Of a stretch of DNA of 64,000 nt, positions 23,759 to 24,783 are shown in pieces. The notes under the pieces were generated by a model that searched no databases, was not told the DNA's origin, and saw nothing but the letters and a program-made list of their open reading frames with translations. The position numbers and the translations under genes were made by a program. Position 1 is the stretch's first letter. The number at the start of each line of letters is the position of its first letter. This DNA comes from Salvator merianae (taxonomy: Eukaryota > Chordata > Lepidosauria > Squamata > Teiidae), in assembly GCA_003586115.2 (NCBI GenBank), contig QVOM02000116.1, positions 43,843,024 through 43,907,023 of the forward strand, read 5' to 3'.

Positions 23759-24783
23759 TAGGGGTGTGCACGAAGCTTCGTGGCATTCGATTTTCGATCG
23801 AATTTCGTGATTTCGTGCCCTTCGCATCGAATGCGAAGGGCACCAGAAATCACGAATGCGAATTGCGAAGGTCCCTCAATTTTTCGAAGTATTTCGGGAC
23901 CTTCGCAATTTGCCAAAGTCTCACCTCTCTAGGCTGTCAGTGCTGGCGCTAAAAAAAAAAAAAAAAAAAAAAAAAAAAAAAAAAAAAAAAAAAAAAAAAA
24001 AAAAAAAAAAAAAAAAAAAAAAAAAAAAAAAAAAAAAAAAAAAAAAAAAAAAAAAAAAAAAAAAAAAAAAAAAAAAAAAAAAAAAAAAAAAAAAAAAAAA
24101 AAAAAAAAAAAAAAAAAAAAAAAAAAAAAAAAAAAAAAAAAAAAAAAAAAAAAAAAAAAAAAAAAAAAAAAAAAAAAAAAAAAAAAAAAAAAAAAAAAAA
24201 AAAAAAAAAAAAAAAAAAAAAAAAAAAAAAAAAAAAAAAAAAAAAAAAAAAAAAAAAAAAAAAAAAAAAAAAAAAAAAAAAAAAAAAAAAAAAAAAAAAA
24301 AAAAAAAAAAAAAAAAAAAAAAAAAAAAAAAAAAAAAAAAAAAAAAAAAAAAAAAAAAAAAAAAAAAAAAAAAAAAAAAAAACCCCCCCCCCAGTCTGTC
24401 ATCAGACTGACAGACTGCGGCGGGAGTGAGAGAGCGCGCTGCGCCATCGGAAGCAGATAAATCAAGGCGAACGGAAGTCCTTTTTGCCTTGATTTCTCTG
24501 CTTCCGATGGCGCTCGCCTCTCTCTCATCCCCCCCCAGTCTGTCATTACACTGACAGACTGGGGGGGGGGAATGAGAGAGAGGCGAGCGCCATCCGAAGC
24601 AGAGAAATTAAGGCAAAGGTCTTCCCTTCACCTTGATTTATCTGCTTCCGTTCGCGGCGAAGATTTTCACCGCGAAAACGAAGGGCTTCATTTTCGTGCG
24701 TATTTTTTCGCACGAAAACGAAGCCTAGGAGCTTCGCAGTCCTGCGAAGCGAAAAGGGAAAAGTGCCTTCGTGCACATCCCTA
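23759..24783. mobile_element. hAT-type non-autonomous element with hairpins and a giant poly-A tract
   Basis: The terminal repeats TAGGGGTGTGCACGAAG and TAGGGATGTGCACGAAG (right end, reversed) match at 16 of 17 positions. The 8-bp duplication GTCCACAC lies on both sides (23751-23758 and 24784-24791). An 8-bp target site and a TAGGGGTG start are diagnostic of hAT elements. The interior is CpG-rich and built of hairpins: 23806-23854, about 23859-23915, and several in 24392-24740 in which AGTCTGTCA..TGACAGACT and CTGCTTCCG units alternate in both orientations. No transposase is present. Apart from the poly-A tract (23951-24382), the element is about 590 bp. Confidence 0.85.
23951..24382. repeat. 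Uninterrupted poly-A tract of 432 bp followed by C10
   Basis: Every base from 23951 to 24382 is A; ten C follow (24383-24392). Reading frames through it give poly-lysine or, on the other strand, poly-phenylalanine, and are meaningless. The tract lies inside a DNA transposon, not at the 3' end of a retroelement, so it is not a retrotransposition tail. A pure run this long could be a true expansion or an assembly or gap-filling artefact. Confidence 0.95.

What the first reader, a model, noticed from the sequence alone, without database searches (positions are those of the whole stretch)
23951..24382. A pure 432-bp poly-A tract inside a DNA transposon
There is no interruption in 432 consecutive A. 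Retroelement tails are shorter, sit at 3' ends and soon gather substitutions; this one is internal to a hAT-type element and is followed by C10. Either a homopolymer has expanded in this locus, which is rare at this length, or the assembler invented or over-extended it.
Basis: seen in the sequence. Interest (0 to 1): 0.75.

Follow-up and report, generated by a model that had tools for sequence, protein, structure and literature searches.

The report
Assembly filler, not real poly-A
The 432-letter run of A is almost certainly filler written during genome assembly over part of a repetitive mobile element, one of hundreds of such runs in this assembly, and not DNA that the animal carries.

Summary
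It sits in a 1025-bp hAT-like element with inverted ends and 8-bp flanking duplications GTCCACAC. Its retained ends differ from sister copies by about 0.7%. No sister copy examined has the A tract; in its place they carry hairpin DNA, 247-254 bp in 16 of 23 measured copies.

The decisive test is genome-wide. T followed by at least 101 A occurs 332 times. Among the 100 sites listed, 77 of 79 neighbouring same-contig pairs share a strand. For ordinary runs of exactly 31 A it is 19 of 45. The first 30 sites have runs of 105 to at least 1601 bases. Twelve of these 30 lie inside this element family or a relative, with A on either element strand, 6 to 6. Only one G run of at least 101 exists.

A strand that follows the contig and not the element means that the As were written during assembly and later flipped with their contig. 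The tract is not real; the element is. Raw reads were not available, and the responsible program is unknown.

The parts
23751..23758 (+). target-site duplication, left copy, GTCCACAC
   Evidence: the only two occurrences of this 8-mer in the window are this and the right copy
23759..24783 (+). hAT-like non-autonomous element, 1025 bases as assembled, ends TAGGGGTGTGCACGAAG ... CTTCGTGCACATCCCTA
   Evidence: 39 further near-complete matches to its 3' part at 98-99% identity in the same genome
23759..23950 (+). retained 5' part of the element (192 bases, hairpin-forming)
   Evidence: 1 substitution in 192 against the majority of sister copies; DNA fold z -9.05
23951..24382 (+). A432, filler in place of element sequence
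24383..24783 (+). retained 3' part of the element: C10, about 1.8 copies of the ~145-base palindromic unit, 3' end
   Evidence: 3 substitutions in 394 against the sister majority; 24383-24793 folds as DNA with z -22.66
24784..24791 (+). target-site duplication, right copy, GTCCACAC

Best explanation
The A432 is filler made during genome assembly. The locus holds a young hAT-like element whose interior is an array of long palindromic units present in very many near-identical copies, which is hard to sequence and assemble. A stretch that could not be resolved was written as a run of A in a large contig or scaffold. Such pieces were later ordered and oriented, and reversed ones now show the filler as T. 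Shown here: replacement of element sequence, recurrence at hundreds of sites, strand uniform within contigs, strand independent of element orientation, A/T only. Inferred: why the letter is A (most simply, unknown bases held in a two-bit code in which A is zero; recalled, not tested), at which step it happened, and that this stretch was unresolved because of the hairpin array.
For: Sister copies lack the tract and carry hairpin DNA there. T plus at least 101 A: 332 matches in the genome; of the 100 listed, 77 of 79 neighbouring same-contig pairs share strand, 12 of 14 contigs with two or more sites are uniform, 20,000 shuffles gave at least 21 disagreements against 2 seen. Control, exactly 31 A: 77 runs in the genome, 19 of 45 neighbouring pairs agree (Fisher P 1.5e-12). 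Thirty sites fetched: runs of 105 to at least 1601 bases in varied repeats; 12 of 30 with both flanks in this family or a relative, A on the element's + strand in 6 and - strand in 6. At one site in another repeat family A349 stands where 4 of 4 sisters have 394-396 bases. Only one G run of at least 101, 131 long.
Against: No reads were seen. Only 100 of 332 sites were listed and only the first 30 fetched, in contig order and not at random. Runs preceded by C or G were not counted. Two of 79 pairs break the rule (C1, C63); that these mark joins of oppositely oriented pieces was not checked. Two fetched sites have a single T inside the A tract (L056, L073) and one (L077, A105) lies beside long T runs and may be natural. 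One G131 run exists. No program or paper naming this artefact was found.
Confidence: 0.97

Rival explanations
1. A real, very recent homopolymer expansion inside this one copy of the element, with loss of the adjoining hairpin DNA.
For: The element is young (4 substitutions in 586 retained bases), so a pure tract need not have had time to decay. Hairpin arrays are plausible sites of replication error (inference).
Against: Sisters have no A run there to expand. Strand uniformity of long A runs within contigs has no biological reason, and runs of 31 A do not show it. In 12 related sites the A strand is independent of the element's strand.
Confidence: 0.015
2. A poly-A tail of a retroelement inserted into the DNA element.
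For: Pure A on one strand.
Against: No retroelement body at either junction: the tract passes directly from element sequence to element sequence. Element sequence is missing and not merely interrupted, 247-254 bases in most sisters. Natural A runs are far shorter: 77 runs of exactly 31 A in the whole genome. Strand uniformity.
Confidence: 0.005
3. A read-level error: sequencing fails in the hairpin array and the base caller or consensus writes A.
For: Inverted duplicates lower nanopore base-calling accuracy, with poor quality beginning at the junction (PMC7229812: abstract, passages and first quarter of the text). The tract starts inside a hairpin arm.
Against: Reads come from both strands, so errors of single reads should give A and T mixed along a contig, unlike. 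Many fetched sites lie outside this family (16 of 30 with no flank match). It may still explain why this element is a frequent site. The sequencing platform is unknown.
Confidence: 0.01

Closest known systems
Wrongly closed or mis-sized gaps in draft assemblies (discussed in PMC8848313, DENTIST; start of abstract and passages seen)
   Same: Gaps in repeats, contig ends reaching into the repeat, inserted sequence that is not the true one, imprecise gap sizes.
   Different: Here the inserted sequence is pure A. The passages seen do not describe that.
Non-autonomous hAT elements (MITE-like)
   Same: Short inverted ends, 8-bp target duplication, high copy number. The ends TAGGGRTG resemble those of maize Ac (recalled, not tested).
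   Different: The interior is a palindromic array whose number of ~145-base units varies between copies. The A tract is no part of the element.

Membership tests
assembly filler artefact | strand of the tracts follows the contig | tested here: met
   77 of 79 neighbouring same-contig pairs agree among 100 listed of 332; control 19 of 45
assembly filler artefact | strand independent of the repeat that holds the tract | tested here: met
   6 same and 6 opposite of 12, read; L060 matches only the palindromic interior, so its orientation is uncertain
assembly filler artefact | absent from raw reads | not testable with these tools
   no reads held
length-preserving conversion of N to A | tract as long as the missing sequence | tested here: not met
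   A349 against 394-396 in 4 of 4 sisters; A432 against 7-398 in 23 sisters. A629 at L068 falls within the range of sister gaps shown, 436-1444, nearest 623; five other sites in the palindromic array gave several possible gaps each and were uninformative. The true unit number at these loci is unknown
hAT superfamily, non-autonomous | 8-bp target-site duplication | tested here: met
   identical 8-mers in 24 of 27 two-ended copies, ours included
hAT superfamily, non-autonomous | short terminal inverted repeats | tested here: met
   TAGGGGTGTGCACGAAG against TAGGGATGTGCACGAAG, 16 of 17
hAT superfamily, non-autonomous | hAT transposase in an autonomous relative with the same ends | not tested
   no transposase search was made

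The most novel reading that the evidence does not exclude
Some of the hundreds of long A tracts, this one included, mark a real genome-wide process that replaces hairpin-rich or repetitive DNA by long pure poly-A.
Probability: 0.01. Interest if true: 0.85.

Novelty: not a real feature. Interest (0 to 1): 0.1.

Why it matters
It is a caution. This assembly holds at least 332 runs of over 100 A that read as ordinary sequence. If they are filler, as argued, repeat lengths, element structures and homopolymer statistics taken from it are distorted at those places. Comparing the strand of long homopolymers along contigs detects such a fault without reads.

Tried and rejected
Real expansion, retroelement tail and read-level hairpin error were considered and rejected mainly on the strand test. 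Length-preserving conversion of N to A was tested and not supported. Paper searches for such an artefact (two found no paper) listed nothing whose title or shown abstract names poly-A filler. They were read as listings, except PMC7229812 (abstract, passages and part 1 of 4 of the text) and PMC8848313 (start of the abstract and passages). Two searches on palindromic hAT elements gave listings that I did not follow up. Not obtained, because the machine did not answer: runs preceded by C, the junction pattern (27 and its repeats) and the 5' part of the element (34, 40, 50, 58). Runs preceded by G were never asked for.

Full report
Observation. The tract is exactly as described: 432 A at 23951-24382, then C10. 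It cannot be chance. The window is positions 43,843,024-43,907,023 of contig C88 of a 2.05-Gb assembly in 1816 contigs.

The host element. The tract lies in an element that starts TAGGGGTGTGCACGAAG, ends CTTCGTGCACATCCCTA and is flanked by GTCCACAC on both sides. A search of the same genome with 24383-24793 gave 1965 first-look candidates, of which 40 were scored; all 40 scored places, this locus included, match nearly the whole query at 98-100%. Of the 30 loci fetched there (ours and 29 sisters) 27 have both ends within the locus. The 26 sisters among them are 709-1717 bases long; ours is 1025. The 8-mers on the two sides are identical in 24 of 27, ours included. The interior is an array of ~145-base palindromic units whose number varies: 2 to 8 matches to the unit motif in the 26 two-ended sisters and 11 in L019, whose 5' end lies outside the locus. 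The part after the tract folds far better than shuffles (z -22.66), and so does the 255-base segment of sister L029 that stands where our A tract is (z -11.34).

The tract replaces sequence. In sisters the bases before the tract, GCTGGCGCT, run on into GACAGCC and further hairpin DNA up to the C run. The distance between these anchors in 23 measured sisters (3 of the 26 did not match the anchor) is 7-398 bases, 247-254 in 16 of them (the same script gives 431 for ours, so it is good to about one base). None of the 26 two-ended sisters has an A or T run above 6. Ten further loci, taken whole, have none above 10. In loci L001-L038 without L009 the longest is 20. The ends of our copy differ from the sister majority at 1 of 192 and 3 of 394 bases, so the copy is young.

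Genome-wide test. T followed by at least 101 A occurs 332 times (179 forward, 153 reverse). The reversed pattern, 101 A then T, occurs 365 times (190 and 175). The tool lists the first 100 places of the 332. Within a contig nearly all point the same way: C88 9 of 9 forward (this site included), C102 12 of 12 reverse, C137 10 of 10 reverse, C95 10 of 10 forward. C63 has 2 reverse, then 17 forward; C1 has 2 forward, then 1 reverse. In all, 77 of 79 neighbouring pairs on the same contig agree; 20,000 shuffles never gave fewer than 21 disagreements against the 2 seen. As control, the 77 runs of exactly 31 A in the genome show 19 agreeing and 26 disagreeing neighbours. A real A tract has no relation to the strand on which a contig happens to be written. 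Filler written in contig orientation, with whole pieces flipped later, has exactly this property.

Other tracts. The first 30 listed sites were fetched. They carry runs of 105 to at least 1601 bases (L061 leaves its locus). Two are broken by a single T (L056, L073), and one, L077, lies beside long T runs and could be natural. Fourteen of 30 have at least one flank, and 12 both flanks, matching this element family or a relative at about 75-100% identity. In these 12 the A lies on the element's + strand in 6 and on its - strand in 6, by my reading of that table; for L060 both matches lie in the palindromic interior, so its orientation is uncertain. The tract is therefore no feature of the element. 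The other sites lie in different sequence. One, L062, sits in a repeat with 40 scored matches, 39 of them other copies at 93-95%. I take it for a LINE-like reverse-transcriptase region from its sequence; this was not tested. There A349 stands where 4 of 4 fetched sisters have 394-396 bases. At six sites in the present family the same comparison was made: A629 at L068 lies within the range of the sister gaps shown (436-1444, nearest 623), and the other five were ambiguous because the flanks match several units. Only one G run of at least 101 exists in the genome, 131 long.

Mechanism. Shown: the A tracts stand in place of repeat sequence, recur hundreds of times, follow contig strand and not element strand, and in the two cases that could be measured do not have the length of the missing sequence. 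Inferred: unresolved stretches were stored or exported as A. Two-bit sequence formats commonly hold A as zero, and some turn unknown letters into A (recalled, not tested). The step and the program are unknown. [quoted passage not shown] Hairpin trouble in nanopore reads (PMC7229812) may explain why this element is a frequent site, but not the contig-wise strand.

Verdict. The hAT-like element with its palindromic array appears real and is a point of minor interest.

Noticed in passing
23759-24783; L010-L048: A young, high-copy hAT-like family whose interior is an array of ~145-base palindromic units, with 2 to 8 unit-motif matches in 26 two-ended copies and 11 in L019, at 98-99% identity in the 3' part. 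Such variation of a hairpin array inside a DNA transposon may deserve study, with the caution that this assembly is unreliable there.
   Followed up: partly
G000 contigs C1 and C63: The strand of the long A runs changes once on each (between 19.4 and 36.6 Mb on C1, between 3.5 and 14.5 Mb on C63), which may mark joins of oppositely oriented pieces.
   Followed up: no
G000:C846:21886732-21886862: A pure run of 131 G, the only G run of at least 101 on either strand.
   Followed up: no
whole genome; L001-L008: C10 followed within 5 bases by A10 gives 885 forward and 982 reverse matches, against 82 and 46 for the order A then C (overlapping matches counted). In 4 loci viewed they sit in unlike surroundings.
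   Followed up: partly
36667-36777; 60210-60278: Short perfect tandem repeats with 53-base (2.1 copies) and 33-base (2.1 copies) units.
   Followed up: no
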